From positions 1 through 62,817 of the forward strand of contig QHYE01000021.1 of the NCBI GenBank assembly GCA_003224055.1: DNA of 62,817 nt, read 5' to 3'. This stretch comes from Acidobacteriota bacterium. Lineage in GTDB: Bacteria; Acidobacteriota; Terriglobia; Acidiferrales; UBA7541. Made by a program: the position numbers and the translations under genes. Of the stretch, positions 20,219-62,817 are shown one piece after another (positions within the stretch are counted from its first letter, which is position 1; each line of letters opens with the position of its first letter). The notes under the pieces were generated by a model. It was given only the letters and a program-made list of their open reading frames with translations, had not been told where the DNA came from and searched no databases.

Positions 20219-22825
20219 ATGCGTACAGTTTTCTCGGCTGTTCTATGCCTCATGCTGCTTTTGTTTTCTTCCGTAATCCTCCTGGGGCAGACTCCTCCCG
20301 CGCATCCTCTCCCTGCGGCCAAACAGGCGAATCTTCCGTCGGAAGACTTTAATGCCAAAGAGGCTTATACCCTTGAACTCATTCAAAACATCATCCGCTT
20401 CGAAGCCGATGGTAAGGGCCAGCGCGATCTCATTCTTCGTGCGCGCATCCAGTCTGAATCCGCCGTCCGCGAATTCGGTCTTCTGGTCTACCCCTTCGCT
20501 TCCAGTTTTGAATCGTTGGACGTCCTCTACGCGCGCGTCCGCAAGCCGGACGGCACCGTCGTAGAGACGCCTGCCTCGGATGTTCAGGAATTAGACTCCG
20601 CTGTCAGCCGAGAAGCCCCAATGTATACGGACCAGCGGGAAAAGCACGTGGCGATCAAATCTCTTTCTGCGGGCGACGTCCTGGAAGCCCATTTTCGCTG
20701 GACCGTTCACGATCCCATTGCGCCCGGCCGATTCTGGTATGACCACTCTTTTTTCCACGATGGAATCTGTGCCCAGGAAATTCTCGAGATCGACGTCCCT
20801 CTCCATCTTCAGGTGAAGCTCCGGAACGGCGACCTTCAACCCTCGGTTCGGGAAGAGAGTGGTCGCCGGTTGTATCGCTTTGAAACTTCCAATCGGAAAA
20901 AGCCAGACGACTCCAAAATTCCAGGCTGGGAGAAGAACTACCATGGCTTAAAGCCGCCTGATGTCCAACTCTCATCCTTTAACTCTTGGGATGAAGTCGG
21001 CACATGGTTTGCCGCCCTCGTGCAGCCCAAAATCGCAGTCACGCCCGAGATTCGCGCAAAAGCGGAGGATCTGACCAAAGGGAAAGTTACAGAAGACGAA
21101 AAAATCCACGCCCTCTATGATTTTGTTTCTAGTCGCTTTCGCTACATCGGGATTGACCTCGGCCTCAGCCGCTATACGCCCCATGGGGCCGCGGACGTTC
21201 TCACCAACCGATATGGAGATTGCAAAGATAAGCACACTCTATTTGCTGCTCTCCTATGGAGCGTCGGCATCTCCGCTTATCCCGCGCTGATCAGTTCGCG
21301 TTACCGCATTGACCCTTCCTTCCCCTCTGTCAGCCTTTTCGATCATGTCATTACCGCGATTCCGCGGGGCGATTCATTCTTGCTTCTAGACACCACTCCT
21401 GAAGTCGCCCCCTTCGGCCTCCTCGTCGCTGCTATCCGCGACCGAGAGGCCCTGGTCGCCCCCACATCTGGTCCCGCTCGCCTGGTCGCCACGCCAGCCG
21501 ACCCTCCGTTCTCTAACTATGAGCGCGTTCGCGTGGATTCTTCGATTGATGAAAAGGGAACCCTCGACGCCAAAATGCGGCTCGAAGAACGCGGCGATTC
21601 TGAACTTGGATTGCGGCTCGCTTATCGCTCTACCCCCCAAAATAAATGGCAGGAACTCACGCAAGGAATTGTCGCTCGCATGGGATTTGCTGGCTCCGTG
21701 AGCGATGTTTCCGTCGATCCACCGGAAGACACATCGCAACCCTTTTCCATTTCCTTTTCCTACCATCGCACGGAATTCCCGGATTGGAAGAACCATCGCA
21801 TTGTTCTTCCCGCTCCTCCTTTTTTCTTCCGCGATCTCACCGAAGAACAAAAGCTTTCCAAAGACCCACTACCCCTGGGACCCCTCCAGGACGTTACCTA
21901 CGACTCGACAATTAAGTTCCCCAAAGGATTTACTCCAATTCTTCCGGCCGCACCAGATCGCAAATTCGATTTCGCGGAGTTTACCGCCGCATACTCGTTT
22001 AAGGATAGTGTTCTCCATGGAACGCTTCATTTGAAAACGCTCCTTCACGAGATCCCCGGTAACAAGCGAGGTGAGTTCAGCGGGATGGCTAAGGCAGTTG
22101 ACGAAGCCGAGCGCCGCTATATCTTTGTCGGGGGCAATTTTCCCATCGGTGCAGCTCCTCCGGCCGCCGCTCTCTTTGGGCTTGTCCCCGGAAAGCCGGA
22201 AGACCTTATCCCCCGCCTTGAAGAAGCGCTGGCGGCAGACCCGGACAATTACGCCATTCTCGAGCGATTGAGCAGAGCGTATTCCGACGCTGGCCGTCCC
22301 GCCGATGCCGTGGCTATTCTGCAAAAATCTATCAACGATCATCCCGACGTTCCTCGTCACCTTTCGCTAGCTCTTGGCAGGGCCTATCTCCGCGTTCCAG
22401 ATACAGGAAAAGCGATGGCTATGTTTAAGACCGCTCTGGACGATGAGTCCGAACCCGAAGAACTGAACAGCGTCGCTTATGCCCTTGCGGAAGCCGGCGT
22501 CAATCTCTCCGAGGCCCTTGAGTACTCCACCCGTGCCGTTTCGTCGCTCTCGTCGAAGACGATGGATATCTCTCCGGATGACACTGAACCCTCGGACTTC
22601 GCTCTCATGCCCGAACTCGCTGCAAATTGGGATACTCTCGGTTGGATAAAGTTCCACCTCGGAGATTTGCCGGCCTCGGAGAGATACCTCGAAGCCGCCT
22701 GGGCACTTATGCAGGCTCCCGATATTGGGGAACATCTCGTGGAGGTTTATGAAAAACGCAGCAAGAAAGAAAAAGCCGCGGCCGTCTGCAATATGGCTTT
22801 AGCTGCTAGTCTCCTGAGTCATTGA
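20219..22825 (+). CDS. Exported DUF3857 / transglutaminase-like / TPR protein
   Basis: 868 aa. A signal peptide is followed by a DUF3857 beta domain (about 40-240), then a transglutaminase-like domain. Its triad is visible: Cys335 in YGDCKDKH, His in FDHVIT and Asp in LLDTTPE. A second beta region and TPR-like helices ([20 protein letters not shown] onward) complete the C-terminus. Such proteins are periplasmic in Bacteroidetes/Acidobacteria; function is unknown. GGAAGG precedes the ATG at 20219. The last codons have been altered by the IS630 insertion at 22807: the native end would read AASDP-stop, now AASLLSH-stop. Confidence 0.9.
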
Positions 22826-23939
22826 TTTCTGACATATTTGTTGTGCCCTGTACAGCCAGAGTGCGGGAAGCGAACCGGCCAATGCTGTTGAGCATCGCAT
22901 CGGCACTCTTGGTCCACACAAAGGGCTTGGGCTGCTCGTTGTGCACGGCGATGAATTCGGAGATCGCGGCTTCCAGTTCACGCACGCTGTAGTGCGAACC
23001 TCGTTTGATCTGGCGCTGTGACAGTAAGGCGAACCAGCGTTCCACCTGATTGATCCACGAACTGTGCGTGGGAGTGAAGTGCAGGTGGTAGCGAGGATGC
23101 CGTAGAAACCAGGCCCGAATTTCCTTGGTCTTGGGGGTGGCATAGTTGTCCAACACCAGATGGACGGTAAGCTCAGCCGGAACGGCACGATCGATCTGAT
23201 TCAAGAATTTGCGGAACTCGATGGCCCGATGGCGTGGCCAGCACTTCCCGATCACCGCTCCCGTGGCGATGTCCAACGCAGCGAACAGGCTGGTGGTGCC
23301 ATGGCGCTTGTAATCGTGAGTTCGACGCTCCGCCTGGCCGGGCAGCATCGGAAGAATCGGCTGGCTACGGCTCAGCGCCTGAATCTGACTCTTCTCATCC
23401 ACGCACAGCACCAGCGCATGATGCGGAGGGTTCAGGTACAAGCCGACGATGTCGCGCACCTGGTCGACCAACAGCGGATCGTTGGATAGTTGAAACGTCT
23501 CGCTGCGATGCGGACGCAACCCGAAGGCCCGCCAGATGCGACTCACCGTGGATTGACTCAAGCCGGTCCTCGCTGCCAAGCCGCGACTGCTCCAATGCGT
23601 TGCTCCTTTGGGAGCCTCTTCCAGAGTGAGGCGCACGGCCCGCTCGACACGGTCATCGCCGATCTGTCGTGGCGCTCCTGGTCGCATCTCGTCCCCTAAA
23701 GCAGCGAGTCCGCCGGTGATAAAACGATTCCGCCACAGGCCCACAGTAAAGCCCGTGGTGTGCAGCTTGGCGGCCACGGCAGCGTTGTTGTGCCCACTGG
23801 CACACTCCAGAATGATACGGGCGCGAAAGGCCAGGGATCGCGAACTCCGCGGTTGCCGCAGCAGTTGCCGCAAAGTGATCTTCTGTTCTGGGCTGACCAC
23901 CAGTTCTCGCTGCTTGGGACGTCCTCGTGGATGCGCCAT
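22806..23939 (-). CDS. IS630-family transposase
   Basis: 377 aa. An N-terminal helix-turn-helix region (to about 140) is followed by a DDE catalytic domain with Asp in CVDEKSQ, Asp in [13 protein letters not shown] and Glu in [11 protein letters not shown]. This is the standard IS630/Tc1-mariner arrangement. The frame is uninterrupted and the stop codon TAG uses the TA of the target duplication, so the element appears complete and possibly active. The start [10 protein letters not shown] is 55 nt inside the right end. Confidence 0.96.
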
Positions 23940-23996: not shown

Positions 23997-24402
23997 GTGA
24001 CCCGTGAGGGGAGATTCCCTTATCGGGAATGGAGAGAGGTCCCTCGGTCGCGCTGCTCCCTCGCCGACAAGTTCGGGGCAGTGGCGATGGAAATCCTTCT
24101 TGGGGATTCTGGTTAACAGTAACACCCCCACCCCCTGTTTTTTGTAAGTGCGGAATCTAAAGGGCTTAGCGATCCTGTAAGCTCTTTGTTTGCAACACTT
24201 ACGGGATATTTCGTAAGTGTTGATTCTAAAGGGGCTTAGGGAAAGCAGAAAATGGAGAATGGAGGATGGAAAATGGCAGGTAAGGGAAGGAGCACAGGCG
24301 GAGAGGCGAGGAGACGGAGAAGTAGCGGACAAAGGAAGGCGCTCCTTTCTCCGCGGCGTTGAAGGACGAGCGGAGTATAACGCAGAAGGTACTTGCTGTC
24401 AA
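23997..24402 (-). repeat. Dispersed three-unit hairpin element with inward promoter, copy A
   Basis: The 604 nt from 23997 to 24600 hold no convincing gene. GTGACCCGTGA is at 23997-24007. The core is 24112-24240: GTTAAC, then TAACACCCCCACCCCCTGT, then three copies of a unit of form GTAAGTGTTGnnnnnAAAGnGCTTAS. Unit 1 (near 24142) and unit 3 (near 24213) are on the plus strand and unit 2 (24175-24203) on the minus strand, so CAACACTTAC/GTAAGTGTTG form a perfect 10-nt stem. The core is about 75-80% identical by eye to 60886-61014. The promoter at 24374-24402 reads towards it on the minus strand. Confidence 0.75.
24374..24402 (-). promoter_or_regulatory. Near-consensus sigma-70 promoter reading into repeat copy A
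   Basis: On the minus strand TTGACA (24402-24397) and TATACT (24379-24374) are 17 nt apart. Transcription would start near 24367, cross about 125 nt of purine/pyrimidine-biased leader and enter the repeat core, then reach the IS transposase. No gene start fits the leader. Confidence 0.65.
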
Positions 24403-24600
24403 TGTTTATTTAGTGTGTAATTCGAATGAATGTGGAAGGTGTTGAAAGGATATGATTTGCCGGTTCGCAGATGCAAAAACAGGACACTGAAAACCGCAGG
24501 ACACGGTACCTGGCCGGTTGGAATACCCGGAGGCTTGGGCTAAGATTCGCGTTGCAGGTACCATCCTCGTTTTGGCCACTACTAAAGAAGGCGGTAAGGA

Positions 24601-58218: not shown

Positions 58219-58295
58219 TTTTTCCGCTTCCTCCAGAATCATTCAGCGTCCCTCTTTCTGCTGTGTTTCCTCCTGCTGATACACTACACGGCGAG

Positions 58296-60812
58296 ATGAA
58301 CTGCACTTTTTGCAACGTGGCGCTGGCGGTGCCGCTGCGCACGACGTTTACCTACGCGATCCCGGAAGCGTTGTGCGGAACTCTGCAACCCGGCAGCCGC
58401 GTGCTTGTGCCGTTCCGGAAGAAAGCGATGGTCGGCGTCGTCGTCGAATTCGCGGAGAGTGTGCCGGCAGGCACGAAGATTCGCGAGATCACGCGCATCT
58501 TGGATTTTGTTCCCGCGCTCACACCAAAATTGATCGAGCTGGCGCAATGGATTGCGGGGTATTACCTGGCGCCGATCGGCGAAGTTTTTCGAGCGATGCT
58601 GCCGCCGCTGACGGAGCTGAAATCGCAACGACAAATTCATTTGACGGCTGCGGGGCGTGAGGCAGCCGAAAGTTTGAGCGGCGGCGAATTGTCGCACGGA
58701 CTTACGCGCAGCGAAGTAGAGCTCCTCGCAAAGCTTAAGAATAAAAGTGGCGCTATGCCGTTTGGTCCTGCGGCAAAACTTGGCGTCGATGCTTCGGGAT
58801 TGCAAAGACTGCGGCGGCGCGGACTCATTGAAATCCGAGAAATTACCGCAGGAAGAAAACGCAGAGTGCAACGCATCGTGGCGTGGAAGGGAGGCGAGGC
58901 GGCACCGTTGGCGAAAGAAGACGAAGAAAAAGAAAACGCAGAGACGCCCTTCGGCTCCGCTCTGGGCAAGCAGAGCGCGCAGAGAAAGCGCGGAGAAGAA
59001 CGCGTGCGGAAATTGCTGGAAACGGAGCGGGGGCCCCTGCCCCTGCCGCAACTGCTGAAGATCGCGAAGGTGACGCGCGCGCTGATCGAGCGGATGTTGC
59101 TTGACGGATTGCTGGAAAGTTGGGAAGAGCCCATTGATCCGGCAGAGGATCCGTTTGAAGCGGGGTACACGCCGCCGGCGCATGAGTTGAATGCGGACCA
59201 GGAGAGCGTGCTCAAAGCGATCCGTGCGCGATTTGAACTGCGCGAATTCGGCGTGCAGCTGCTGCACGGCGTGACGGGCAGCGGAAAGACCGAAGTGTAT
59301 CTGCGCGCGGTGCAGGACACGCTGGCGCGCGGGAAGACGGCGATCATTCTGGTGCCGGAAATTGCATTGACGTTGTGGATTGGACGGCAATGCCGGTCGT
59401 GGTTTGGTGCGAAGTTCGAGGGCGTGGCGGTGCTGCATTCGGCGCTGAGCGACGTGGAGCGGGCGCGCGAATGGTGGCGCGTGAGGAACGGAGAGGCGCG
59501 CGTCGTTGTCGGTACGCGGTCGGCGATATTTGCACCGCTCGAAAATGTCGGGTTAATCATCGTCGATGAAGAACAGGAGAACAGCTACAAACAGGAAGAG
59601 ACGCCGCGCTATCACGGGCGGGATGTGGCCATCGTGCGCGCGAAGATGGAAGGCGCGCTGGCGCTGCTGGGATCGGCGACGCCGTCGATGGAGACGTATC
59701 ATCACGCGCGCAATGGGAAATATGAACTGCTTACGCTGGCTTCGCGCGTGGCGGAGCGTTCTCTCGCGAGCGTCGAAATCGTGGATCTGCGTGATGAATT
59801 TCAGCAAACCCACCAGGCCAGCCCGATTTCCGCGAAGTTGCATGCGGGCATTCAGGAATGCCTGACGAGTGGCGCGCAGGCGCTGGTGTTGATCAACCGG
59901 CGCGGCTATTCGTGGTCGGTCTTGTGCAGAAGCTGCGGAGCGTCGGTGCAATGCGCGAACTGCAGCATCTCGATGACGCATCACAAACAGCGCAACCGGC
60001 TGGAGTGCCACTACTGCGGATCGATCCAGCAGATACCGAAGCAATGCCCGAAGTGCCAGTCGAAATACGTTTATTTTTTCGGCGAAGGCTCGGAGCACCT
60101 GGAAGAAAGGCTACGCAAGGAATTTCCCGGCGCGCGCATCGCGCGGGTGGACCGGGACACGGCGCGGACCAAAAGGCAGTACCAAGAAACGCTCGGAGCC
60201 TTCGCGGGCGGCGCGCTGGATATTCTGGTCGGCACGCAGATGCTTGCGAAAGGACATGATTTTCAACGCGTCACGCTGGTCGGCGTGGTTTCTGCGGATT
60301 CCTCGTTGAGCCTGCCGGATTTTCGCGCAGCGGAGCGGACGTTTCAGTTGCTGACGCAGGTGGCCGGCCGCGCAGGCCGCGGCGAACTCGCCGGTCAGGT
60401 TCTCATCCAAACCTTTTATCCCGAGCATTACGCCATTCAGGACGCCGTCAAGCAGGACTACGTTTCGTTTTTTGAGCGGGAGTTGCATTTCCGGCGAATG
60501 ATGGCGTACCCGCCGTTCACGTCTCTGGCGAGTGTGATTGTGCGGGATATGAGCCTCGAGAAGGCGATTCGCTGGTCGCGGCAGCTTTCCGAATATTTTT
60601 CGCCGCATGACGACAAGGACGTGCGAATCCTGGGACCGGCCACGGCGCCTCTGGCACGATTGAAAAAGGAGCACCGGTTCCAGTTTCTGCTGAAATCGCC
60701 GAAGCGATCGGTGTTGACGAGGCTGCTGGGCGGGGCGATGGCCTATTGCGATGCCAAGGATATCCCTCAGACCGCCGTGCTGGTGGATATGGATCCGCTG
60801 AGCTTGCTGTGA
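58296..60812 (+). CDS. priA: Primosomal helicase PriA
   Basis: 838 aa from the ATG 58296 (an upstream start at 58263 adds 11 residues). An N-terminal DNA-binding domain precedes Walker A GVTGSGKTE, then DEEQ at 424-427 where PriA normally has DEEH. The helicase core continues YKQEETPRYHGRDVAI. Eight Cys of the zinc domain are present (CRSCGASVQCANC, CHYCG, CPKC). RVDRDTA, LVGTQMLAKGHDF and QVAGRAGR complete the helicase. It restarts stalled replication forks. It ends the long same-strand block. Confidence 0.95.
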   Translation: MNCTFCNVALAVPLRTTFTYAIPEALCGTLQPGSRVLVPFRKKAMVGVVVEFAESVPAGTKIREITRILDFVPALTPKLIELAQWIAGYYLAPIGEVFRAMLPPLTELKSQRQIHLTAAGREAAESLSGGELSHGLTRSEVELLAKLKNKSGAMPFGPAAKLGVDASGLQRLRRRGLIEIREITAGRKRRVQRIVAWKGGEAAPLAKEDEEKENAETPFGSALGKQSAQRKRGEERVRKLLETERGPLPLPQLLKIAKVTRALIERMLLDGLLESWEEPIDPAEDPFEAGYTPPAHELNADQESVLKAIRARFELREFGVQLLHGVTGSGKTEVYLRAVQDTLARGKTAIILVPEIALTLWIGRQCRSWFGAKFEGVAVLHSALSDVERAREWWRVRNGEARVVVGTRSAIFAPLENVGLIIVDEEQENSYKQEETPRYHGRDVAIVRAKMEGALALLGSATPSMETYHHARNGKYELLTLASRVAERSLASVEIVDLRDEFQQTHQASPISAKLHAGIQECLTSGAQALVLINRRGYSWSVLCRSCGASVQCANCSISMTHHKQRNRLECHYCGSIQQIPKQCPKCQSKYVYFFGEGSEHLEERLRKEFPGARIARVDRDTARTKRQYQETLGAFAGGALDILVGTQMLAKGHDFQRVTLVGVVSADSSLSLPDFRAAERTFQLLTQVAGRAGRGELAGQVLIQTFYPEHYAIQDAVKQDYVSFFERELHFRRMMAYPPFTSLASVIVRDMSLEKAIRWSRQLSEYFSPHDDKDVRILGPATAPLARLKKEHRFQFLLKSPKRSVLTRLLGGAMAYCDAKDIPQTAVLVDMDPLSLL

Positions 60813-60818
60813 GCGGAT

Positions 60819-61180
60819 GTGACCCGTGACTGGTGACTCGTGATTCTTCCTGGGCTATGGGATAGCATTCCATCCAGGATTTCTAGTTAACGATAACACC
60901 CCCTCCCCCTGTGTTTTTTGTAAGTGTTGATTCTAAAGAGCTTAGCTTTTCTGTAAGTCTTTTGTTTTCAACACTTACAAGCAAGTCCACAAGTGTTGAT
61001 TCTAAGAGACTTGCATTGCGCCAGAATTGCGCAGAATGGGCTGTTTCTCGTCGTATTCAAAGGAGTAAGAGGGTTCCCCGCAGGTGGCGCGACCTAGTTC
61101 CTAGGCTAACAGGGAGGGAGCGCAGGCAATCGCGCAGGTTTACCTGAGTGTGATTATACCTCCGGGTTACTTAAAGTCAA
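60819..61180 (-). repeat. Dispersed three-unit hairpin element with inward promoter, copy B
   Basis: The 495 nt between priA and the TonB gene hold no gene. GTGACCCGTGA is at 60819-60829, seven nt after the priA stop. The core at 60886-61014 starts GTTAAC and runs through a C-rich tract, a plus unit (near 60919), a minus unit (60951-60980) and a plus unit (near 60989), the two plus units 69 nt apart exactly as in copy A. A minus-strand promoter lies at 61153-61180. Confidence 0.75.
61153..61180 (-). promoter_or_regulatory. Near-consensus sigma-70 promoter reading into repeat copy B
   Basis: On the minus strand TTGACT (61180-61175) and TATAAT (61158-61153) are 16 nt apart. Transcription would start near 61146 and cross about 132 nt of leader, with possible small hairpins such as CAGGTAAACCTG, before the repeat core and the priA 3' end. 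Confidence 0.65.
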
Positions 61181-62281: not shown

Positions 62282-62817
62282 GTGCGCCGTGAAAGGCGCT
62301 GGTCCACAGCGGGGGTATACCCGCCCGGGAACTGGTTCGCTCCACCCGGTAGCAATCAGAGCAGCGGTGGAGGCAACGAGACTGCTGAAGCCTCTGGTGC
62401 AGAGGGTCGCTATGGCGACTCGGCGAGCATGCAGGCCGTAACGTGAGTGAACGCTGAGCAGGCCTCGAAAAGACTAATGCAGGAGCCGACCCGCCCCGAT
62501 TATGGGGAAGGCCGAAGCGGAGGGAATGGTATGAGCGAACAAATTCCATCTGACCTGCCGGGGTATTGGCGACGGCATGCAGGCAAAGGGGACCATGCGT
62601 AACACGGGAAGTCCCAGCGGTGATCGCGGTTTTCGGATCAACTGGCAACTCGCGAGAGATAGGCCGGGCCGTTTGGGATGGCGGAGAGGCTCATAGTACC
62701 GATGAAGCCGGGTAATTCCAGTGGAGGGAAGGGGCCTCAGTTGAAAGGAAACGCAAGAAGCAACGAAGGACCGAGGGATTGGCGATGAGCCTAACAACTC
62801 CACTTAGCGTTCAGAAG
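62282..62817 (+). mobile_element. Group II intron, 5' part (rest outside window)
   Basis: The sequence from 62282 starts GTGCGCC, the GUGYG 5' end of group II introns. The following 500 nt contain blocks I recognise from bacterial retrointrons, such as GATGGCGGAGAGGCTCATAG and GTACCGATGAAGCCGGGTAA, before an ORF. The 5' exon is the 107-nt gap upstream of the TonB gene (62175-62281). Domains V-VI and the 3' splice site lie beyond 62817. Confidence 0.85.
62785..62817 (+). CDS. Group II intron reverse transcriptase/maturase, first 11 codons
   Basis: The ATG at 62785 opens MSLTTPLSVQK, resembling the start of LtrA-type intron-encoded proteins (…TPxSVQKLQ). Only these codons are in the window, so domains cannot be seen. 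The position about 500 nt after the intron 5' end fits an ORF in domain IV. Confidence 0.65.
   Translation, partial: MSLTTPLSVQK

What the first reader, a model, noticed from the sequence alone, without database searches (positions are those of the whole stretch)
23997..24402. Dispersed element: three hairpin-like units (+,-,+) and a strong promoter pointing into them
Seen directly: 23997-24402 and 60819-61180 share the same architecture. Both start with GTGACCCGTGA at a gene end, then GTTAAC, a CCCCCnCCCCC tract, and three copies of GTAAGTGTTGnnnnnAAAGnGCTTAS in +,-,+ order with 69 nt between the plus units. On the minus strand a TTGACA/TATACT (24402) or TTGACT/TATAAT (61180) promoter lies at nearly the same distance (about 125 and 132 nt). 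The leaders differ in sequence while the core and layout are kept. This suggests a mobile or regulatory element that makes a small structured RNA antisense to gene ends. No named family is known to me.
Basis: partly seen in the sequence, partly recalled or inferred. Interest (0 to 1): 0.65.

Follow-up and report, generated by a model that had tools for sequence, protein, structure and literature searches.

The report
Promoter-driven dispersed repeat in soil Acidobacteriota
Scattered between the genes of a group of soil bacteria are dozens of copies of a short DNA element that often carries its own start signal for making RNA and a set of repeated boxes that evolution seems to keep intact; it matched no named family, and what its RNA would do is unknown.

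Summary
Both units belong to one dispersed intergenic family: 40 distinct copies examined in this genome, matches in 32 of 36 genomes of the genus, thinning out in related genera. An exact 3'-end pattern found only Acidobacteria MAGs among 84,980 species. The minus strand is the sense strand. A strong sigma70-like promoter facing the boxes is a recurrent part: 55 of 95 copies against 5, 3 and 1 of 95 in controls; in 38 other copies 18 against 1. It is about as common where the neighbour gene could not use it. Order in sense direction: promoter, leader, three boxes (+,-,+), A-run, G-tract. The boxes are conserved as sequence more than as a fold. At sites shared by species, positions conserved in other copies show 11% mismatches, other positions 40%. 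Match number does not follow Y1 (RAYT-type) transposases; eight genomes with 40-86 matches have no reverse-transcriptase match. Best reading: promoter-bearing non-coding RNA elements whose boxes are under selection. No transcript was seen, and about half the copies lack a strong promoter.

The parts
24374..24402 (-). copy 1 promoter: TTGACA (24402-24397), 17-nt spacer, TATACT (24379-24374)
   Evidence: recurrent feature of the family
24240..24373 (-). copy 1 leader between promoter and boxes (alike in L002 and L003 by eye; not the class I leader)
24213..24239 (+). copy 1 box unit 3 (first box in sense direction)
24177..24202 (-). copy 1 box unit 2, inverted
24144..24169 (+). copy 1 box unit 1 (last box in sense direction)
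24125..24143 (-). copy 1 end in sense direction: A-run then GGGGGTGGGGG (plus strand CCCCCACCCCC-TGTTTTTT)
24112..24124 (.). GTTAACAGTAACA module beside the G-tract; such a module (up to 3 mismatches) is in 29 of 40 own-genome copies and 7 of 56 others
61153..61180 (-). copy 2 promoter: TTGACT (61180-61175), 16-nt spacer, TATAAT (61158-61153)
61015..61152 (-). copy 2 leader
60989..61014 (+). copy 2 box unit 3
60953..60978 (-). copy 2 box unit 2, inverted
60920..60945 (+). copy 2 box unit 1
60899..60919 (-). copy 2 end in sense direction: A-run then GGGGGAGGGGG (plus strand CCCCCTCCCCC-TGTGTTTTTT)
60886..60898 (.). GTTAACGATAACA module beside the G-tract
58263..60812 (+). priA, left neighbour of copy 2; of the 20 orthologous ends looked at (35 of 36 genomes had a match), 2 carry this element by profile and 3 more a sister subtype by eye

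Best explanation
The two units are members of a dispersed family of promoter-bearing, non-coding RNA elements of one family of Acidobacteriota. SHOWN: many intergenic copies; a sigma70-like promoter facing the boxes in about half of them, far above controls; the order promoter - leader - box (+) - box (-) - box (+) - A-run - G-tract; a boundary at the G-tract; sites shared between species; conserved positions kept at those sites while other positions drift. INFERRED: RNA polymerase starts about 115-135 nt before the first box (window: near 24367 and 61146) and makes an RNA of about 245 nt up to the end of the G-tract. In it the middle box can pair with either the first or the last box, giving two mutually exclusive hairpins. 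The RNA works through the boxes, as binding sites for an unknown protein or partner RNA, mostly in trans, because the element stands in any orientation to its neighbours. It spreads now and then as a non-autonomous element by an unknown enzyme, and copies are then kept by selection.
For: Copies: 40 distinct ones from the own genome and 56 from others; matches in 32 of 36 genomes of the genus, 41 of 299 of the class. Match counts overstate copies: 34 of 36 own-genome loci with a match gave 64 matches, about 1.9 each, because the inverted boxes match twice. Intergenic, mixed orientation: none of 96 inside a called gene, left neighbour + 41, - 53 of 94. Promoter (score 12 or more): 55 of 95 vs 5 (other strand), 3 and 1 (left flank); 38 other copies: 18 vs 1 of 38, 0 and 1 of 37 downstream, 4 of 190 shuffles. 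It belongs to the element: 21 of 40 copies whose left neighbour reads against it, 32 of 53 whose left neighbour could use it. Leader and promoter alike in sequence in 28 copies. Shared sites: 16 between-species pairs. Constraint, columns defined on 47 other copies: mismatches 72/649 vs 206/514 in 11 pairs. No consistent reading frame: ORFs of 25 codons or more on the sense strand in 58 of 96, antisense 57 of 96; class I 10 of 28, at differing positions.
Against: No transcript was seen. 40 of 95 and 20 of 38 copies lack a promoter of score 12 within 350 nt. RNAalifold predicts 0 pairs; box sequence conservation fits DNA-binding sites as well as RNA. In 20 of 95 copies a terminator-like site lies on the sense strand within 230 nt before the boxes (antisense 1 of 95), which could keep the boxes untranscribed. 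I saw no shared terminator after the G-tract by eye. Of 14 shared-site pairs compared, 4 are less alike than the mean of unrelated pairs (mean 0.740 vs 0.701), so new insertion or conversion at some sites is possible; one further pair sharing 298 nt of flank (L035/L050) has it on opposite sides.
Confidence: 0.55

Rival explanations
1. A selfish, MITE-like or ERIC/BOX/Correia-like interspersed repeat that carries a promoter but has no host function; constraint reflects only what its mobilising enzyme needs.
For: 0 to 91 matches per genome within one genus, mixed orientation to genes, different subtypes at one site, sigma70-like promoters in known repeats of this kind (PMC10969869, passages), some such repeats transcribed (PMC3049150, abstract).
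Against: Copies at sites shared by species keep the conserved positions while much of the intergenic region is hardly alignable; a dead insertion should decay evenly. No terminal inverted repeat was recognised by eye, and the three mobilising gene families counted do not track it (correlation computed only for Y1).
Confidence: 0.3
2. REP/TIR sequences of a RAYT or TIRYT transposase (Y1 family), as reported for Koribacter.
For: TIRYT genes with repeated TIRs are reported in Acidobacteria (PMC3733652, section 16); an element lies within about 200-1300 nt of some Y1 genes.
Against: Of 40 Y1 loci fetched (a part of those listed; some cut by contig ends, some chosen because an element was known nearby) none has elements on both sides; 6 have one at E<=1e-3, 10 at E<=1. 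Match number and Y1 count are unrelated over 36 genomes (Spearman 0.05, p 0.77); G006 has 91 matches and no Y1 match.
Confidence: 0.06
3. A cis-acting leader or 3' element that controls the neighbouring gene (attenuator or antisense 3' element).
For: Two mutually exclusive hairpins are possible. At shared sites the left flank matches in 13 pairs and the right flank in 5.
Against: Orientation to the left gene is mixed (41 vs 53) and the distance runs from about 0 to 772 nt.
Confidence: 0.07
4. A retroposed RNA: conserved 3' end with variable 5' leaders, copied by a resident reverse transcriptase.
For: A boundary at the G-tract and several unlike leaders; G000, G006 and G023 do have RVT_1 matches.
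Against: In class I copies the promoter is carried along, and G048, G013, G014, G008, G051, G045, G012 and G004 with 40-86 matches have no RVT_1 match (drafts of 77-98% completeness).
Confidence: 0.02

Closest known systems
Correia repeat enclosed elements (Neisseria) and other promoter-bearing MITEs
   Same: Short, mostly intergenic, multi-copy, carry sigma70-like promoters (PMC10969869, passages)
   Different: No terminal inverted repeat recognised here and target duplication not tested; promoter faces inward into a box array in +,-,+ order; G-tract end
BOX elements of Streptococcus pneumoniae
   Same: Small interspersed repeats with extensive secondary structure, some expressed (PMC3049150, abstract and section list); modular make-up is recalled
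   Different: Unrelated taxon; the abstract states no promoter of their own; here a promoter is found in about half of the copies
ERIC sequences
   Same: About 120-130 nt imperfect palindrome between genes (recalled); counted among MITEs in the review
   Different: Different taxon; here promoter and leader make the unit about 280-320 nt
REPtrons/TIRtrons with RAYT/TIRYT transposases (PMC3733652, section 16)
   Same: Dispersed inverted repeats in Acidobacteria; the TIR motif GGGGWSAS recalls the G-tract
   Different: No element pair around the Y1 loci examined and no link of numbers; GGGGTGGG does not fit GGGGWSAS at position 7
Bordetella bprJ repeat (PMC3110155, abstract)
   Same: A small RNA sequence that proved to belong to a repeat of about 90 bp in many copies with features of mobile elements
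   Different: Betaproteobacteria; no sequence comparison was made

Membership tests
Rfam families (release 15) | score above the family's gathering threshold | tested here: not met
   nothing over the element in the window or in 20 loci; (24000-24410, permissive): 4 matches, all far below gathering scores
REP/RAYT or TIRYT (Y1 transposase) repeats | repeat pair flanking a Y1 transposase gene | tested here: not met
   40 Y1 loci, none with elements on both sides; some loci are cut by contig ends
REP/RAYT or TIRYT (Y1 transposase) repeats | repeats present where the transposase is present | tested here: not met
   Spearman 0.05 over 36 genomes; G006 91 matches, no Y1
REP/RAYT or TIRYT (Y1 transposase) repeats | identity with the Koribacter ORF1552 TIR repeat | not testable with these tools
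   the sequences are in a figure of PMC3733652 that is not held
MITE | terminal inverted repeats shared with an autonomous element | tested here: inconclusive
   C-rich 5' start and G-tract end, no clear TIR by eye; an autonomous relative was sought only through three gene families
MITE | target-site duplication | not tested
   flanks at shared sites are too diverged; no strain-level empty site was at hand
promoter-bearing intergenic repeats (kind) | multi-copy, intergenic, own sigma70-like promoter | tested here: met
   (promoter in about half of the copies)
structured non-coding RNA family | conserved secondary structure with covariation | tested here: inconclusive
   0 pairs by RNAalifold; named hairpins 76.6% and 81.4% paired; covariation score 0.141 vs 0.118 and 0.090 vs 0.077 in shuffles; strongest compensatory pair columns 21:58 (UA 29, GC 28)
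structured non-coding RNA family | transcript | not testable with these tools
   no expression data

The most novel reading that the evidence does not exclude
A lineage-specific system of dozens of paralogous small RNA genes per genome, ending in an A-run and G-tract and presenting the same boxes, that act together in trans (for example as a distributed sponge for one RNA-binding protein), and that arose from a mobile element still changing copy number between species.
Probability: 0.3. Interest if true: 0.8.

Novelty: new variant of a known kind. Interest (0 to 1): 0.6.

Why it matters
Interspersed intergenic repeats are often read as inert palindromes or transposon remnants. Here an inward promoter is a recurrent part, and the boxes seem to be kept at single loci over species distances. 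That makes a direct test possible of whether a repeat family has become a set of RNA genes. It also gives soil Acidobacteriota, which have few described non-coding RNAs (recalled), a family that can be looked for at once in existing transcriptomes.

Tried and rejected
Y1/RAYT origin: counted, fetched and scanned, rejected for want of flanking pairs and of correlation; against this, some Y1 genes do lie within about 200-1300 nt of an element. Reverse transcriptase and IS91-type Y2 transposase as movers: no RVT_1 match in eight genomes with 40-86 element matches and no Y2 match in G000, G048, G023, G014 and G008, though G000, G006 and G023 have RVT_1 matches and G006 and G013 one Y2 match each. 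Protein coding of the class I leader: one plus-strand frame reads like VGEKVT.WDGKILKELEGL, spacing is constant in 19 of 20 copies, 4 of 20 have a stop at the same eighth codon, the others stay open for 15 to 69 codons; ORFs of 25 codons or more are no commoner on the sense strand (58 of 96) than antisense (57 of 96), and in class I occur in 10 of 28 at differing positions. A consensus RNA fold: none. Viral contigs: 0 matches to the exact 3'-end pattern, a narrow pattern. Literature: six searches; in the listings seen (5 of 5, 7 of 7, 20 of 72, 20 of 106, 1 of 1, 12 of 249 papers, titles and starts of abstracts) none described this repeat; only open-licence papers are held. My note calls the copy 2 neighbour ClpB; Pfam shows PriA.

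Limits: gene neighbours come from a simple codon-score gene finder written here, with 25 nt of overlap allowed, not from an annotation. Match counts count the same copy about 1.9 times and are capped at 101 scored candidates per genome. The promoter score and its threshold of 12 are my own; other thresholds are printed (at 10, one search gives 21 against 6 of 38). In one search copies under 25 bits or under 60 model positions, and duplicates, were dropped, leaving 96; one with a short flank was dropped, leaving 95. Alignment A1 has 69 of the 71 rows listed (L005 and L161 left out). In one search, 2 of 40 fetched loci were left out because they had been used before. One search used 11 of 16 shared-site pairs (2 not in A1, 3 redundant); its five clearest pairs were picked by mutual similarity. 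The conserved columns were drawn from the same rows and are partly circular; one search mends that.

Full report
WHAT IS THERE. They are copies of a dispersed family. With the 130-nt core of copy 1 as query, 55 matching pieces were found in the own genome (40 of 51 candidates scored), 31 of them at E below 1e-4. Forty distinct own-genome copies were examined. A profile of 69 copies gives 75 matches in the own genome, matches in 32 of 36 genomes of the genus, and up to 91 matches in one. These are matches, not copies: over 36 own-genome loci, 34 had a match and together gave 64, so 91 matches means roughly 50 copies. In a sample of 299 genomes of the class, 41 have a match: 28 of the own genus, 11 in six other genera of the same family, and two weak single matches in another family. 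The exact pattern of the 3' end occurs in 16 stretches among 84,980 species, all titled Acidobacteria MAGs, 9 of them labelled gp2 (the own genome may be left out there), and in no viral contig.

ANATOMY. The minus strand of the window is the sense strand. Of 96 copies examined (40 own, 56 from other genomes), none lies inside a called gene. The order is: promoter, leader, box, inverted box, box, A-run, G-tract, typically G5NG5, shorter in many copies of other species. C5NC5 occurs only 36 times in 4.5 Mb; by my reading of the flanks 29 of these lie in elements of this or a sister subtype. Beyond the G-tract the sequence differs between copies. In the own genome a GTTAACCATAACA module follows in 29 of 40 copies, in other genomes in 7 of 56, so it is not a constant part.

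PROMOTER. A sigma70-like promoter scoring 12 or more lies within 350 nt upstream of the first box, facing the boxes, in 55 of 95 copies. Controls give 5 (same DNA, other strand), 3 and 1 (left flank, two strands) of 95. In 38 copies not in the first set, the counts are 18 against 1 of 38, 0 and 1 of 37 downstream, and 4 of 190 shuffles. The promoter is about as common where the left gene cannot use it (21 of 40) as where it could (32 of 53). In 28 copies picked by one leader class, most promoter columns and part of the sequence before them are conserved (mostly 60-90% per column), with the -35 at about 153-156 nt from the boxes in many. Other leaders differ in sequence. In 20 of 95 copies a terminator-like site lies on the sense strand within 230 nt before the boxes, on the other strand in 1. 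Against the reading: 40 of 95 and 20 of 38 copies show no strong promoter, and I saw no shared terminator after the G-tract.

STRUCTURE OR SEQUENCE. The first and last boxes are direct repeats and the middle one is inverted, so the middle can pair with either. Named pairings are formed in 76.6% and 81.4% of cells, against 25-42% in slid versions, but covariation exceeds shuffles only a little, and RNAalifold predicts no pair. Ten single copies of my choice have z-scores from -0.83 to -6.54; the longer transcript of copy 1 has -2.69 and that of L010 +0.41. I conclude that box sequence is conserved first, and pairing is possible but not shown to be selected.

EVOLUTION. Among copies sampled from three species (40, 21 and 20), 16 pairs between species share flanking DNA on the same side and in the same orientation, among them the priA site of copy 2; one more pair shares 298 nt on opposite sides. 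In the alignments seen, much of the rest of the intergenic DNA is hardly alignable. The 14 pairs that could be compared have a mean core identity of 0.740 against 0.701 for unrelated pairs; 4 lie below that mean, so replacement or new insertion happens too. With conserved columns defined on 47 other copies, mismatches in 11 pairs are 72 of 649 in conserved columns and 206 of 514 elsewhere; in the five mutually most similar pairs 13 of 295 and 80 of 234. At the priA site, of 20 genomes looked at, 2 carry this element by profile and 3 more a sister subtype by eye, all with the C-tract on the priA coding strand; in the other 15 the profile finds none within 700 nt and I saw none in the 400 nt printed.

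WHAT IT IS NOT. No Rfam family. Not, on the tests made, the flanking repeats of a Y1 transposase. No dependence on a resident reverse transcriptase or Y2 transposase was seen. No consistent reading frame was found.

MECHANISM. Shown: family, promoter in about half of the copies, order, constraint. Inferred: transcription from the promoter into the boxes, an RNA of about 245 nt, action through the boxes, probably in trans, and occasional spread by an unknown enzyme. The chief rival is a selfish promoter-bearing repeat without host function; constraint at shared sites speaks against it but does not exclude it.

NOVELTY. Promoter-bearing intergenic repeats are a known kind (PMC10969869, passages; compare PMC3049150, abstract). 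This family, with an inward promoter, a +,-,+ box array and a G-tract end, was not seen in the listings of six literature searches, three of which were long and listed only in part. I rate it a new variant of that kind.

Noticed in passing
L200 (own genome contig C128, about 11.9-14.6 kb): A transposon with an IS1595-like transposase (family name recalled, not tested) sits inside one element copy; the letters TTTGTAAG stand on both sides, as an 8-bp target duplication would.
   Followed up: partly
L017 about 1590 and L030 about 1595: Two copies are cut at nearly the same base of the middle box by the same sequence (GGCTCTGTTGACATCC...), perhaps an insertion sequence that targets the box.
   Followed up: no
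L167 16-186; window 62307-62446: Group II introns (RF02001, RF02003). Near the one in L167 stands a C-tract and T-run like the end of this element.
   Followed up: partly
G000 copies, just beyond the GTTAACC module: A short hairpin whose arms differ from copy to copy but pair perfectly in several copies (AGACATGC/GCATGTCT, ACGCATCC/GGATGCGT, AGCTATCC/GGATAGCT), often followed by a like CCTGAGCGACC...GAAGGACCTCTCT stretch.
   Followed up: no
L143, L144, L145 (after priA in G013, G023, G048); L166, L189 in the own genome: Sister subtypes with other boxes; by eye the first three have the same promoter direction and G-tract end.
   Followed up: partly
several G014 and G023 copies, beyond the G-tract: A further box-like array (TAACTCCTTTTCTGTCACATCCTTAGCAGCCCCC...ATCGAATCACATCCTTACAAAAAC) follows, so elements can stand in tandem.
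   Followed up: no
window 22806-23939: Transposase gene next to copy 1 (DDE_3, HTH_32), IS630-type by recall.
   Followed up: no
L050 967-1080 and about 1500-1730: A short, probably decayed Y1 transposase match about 400-500 nt from an element of the second subtype.
   Followed up: partly
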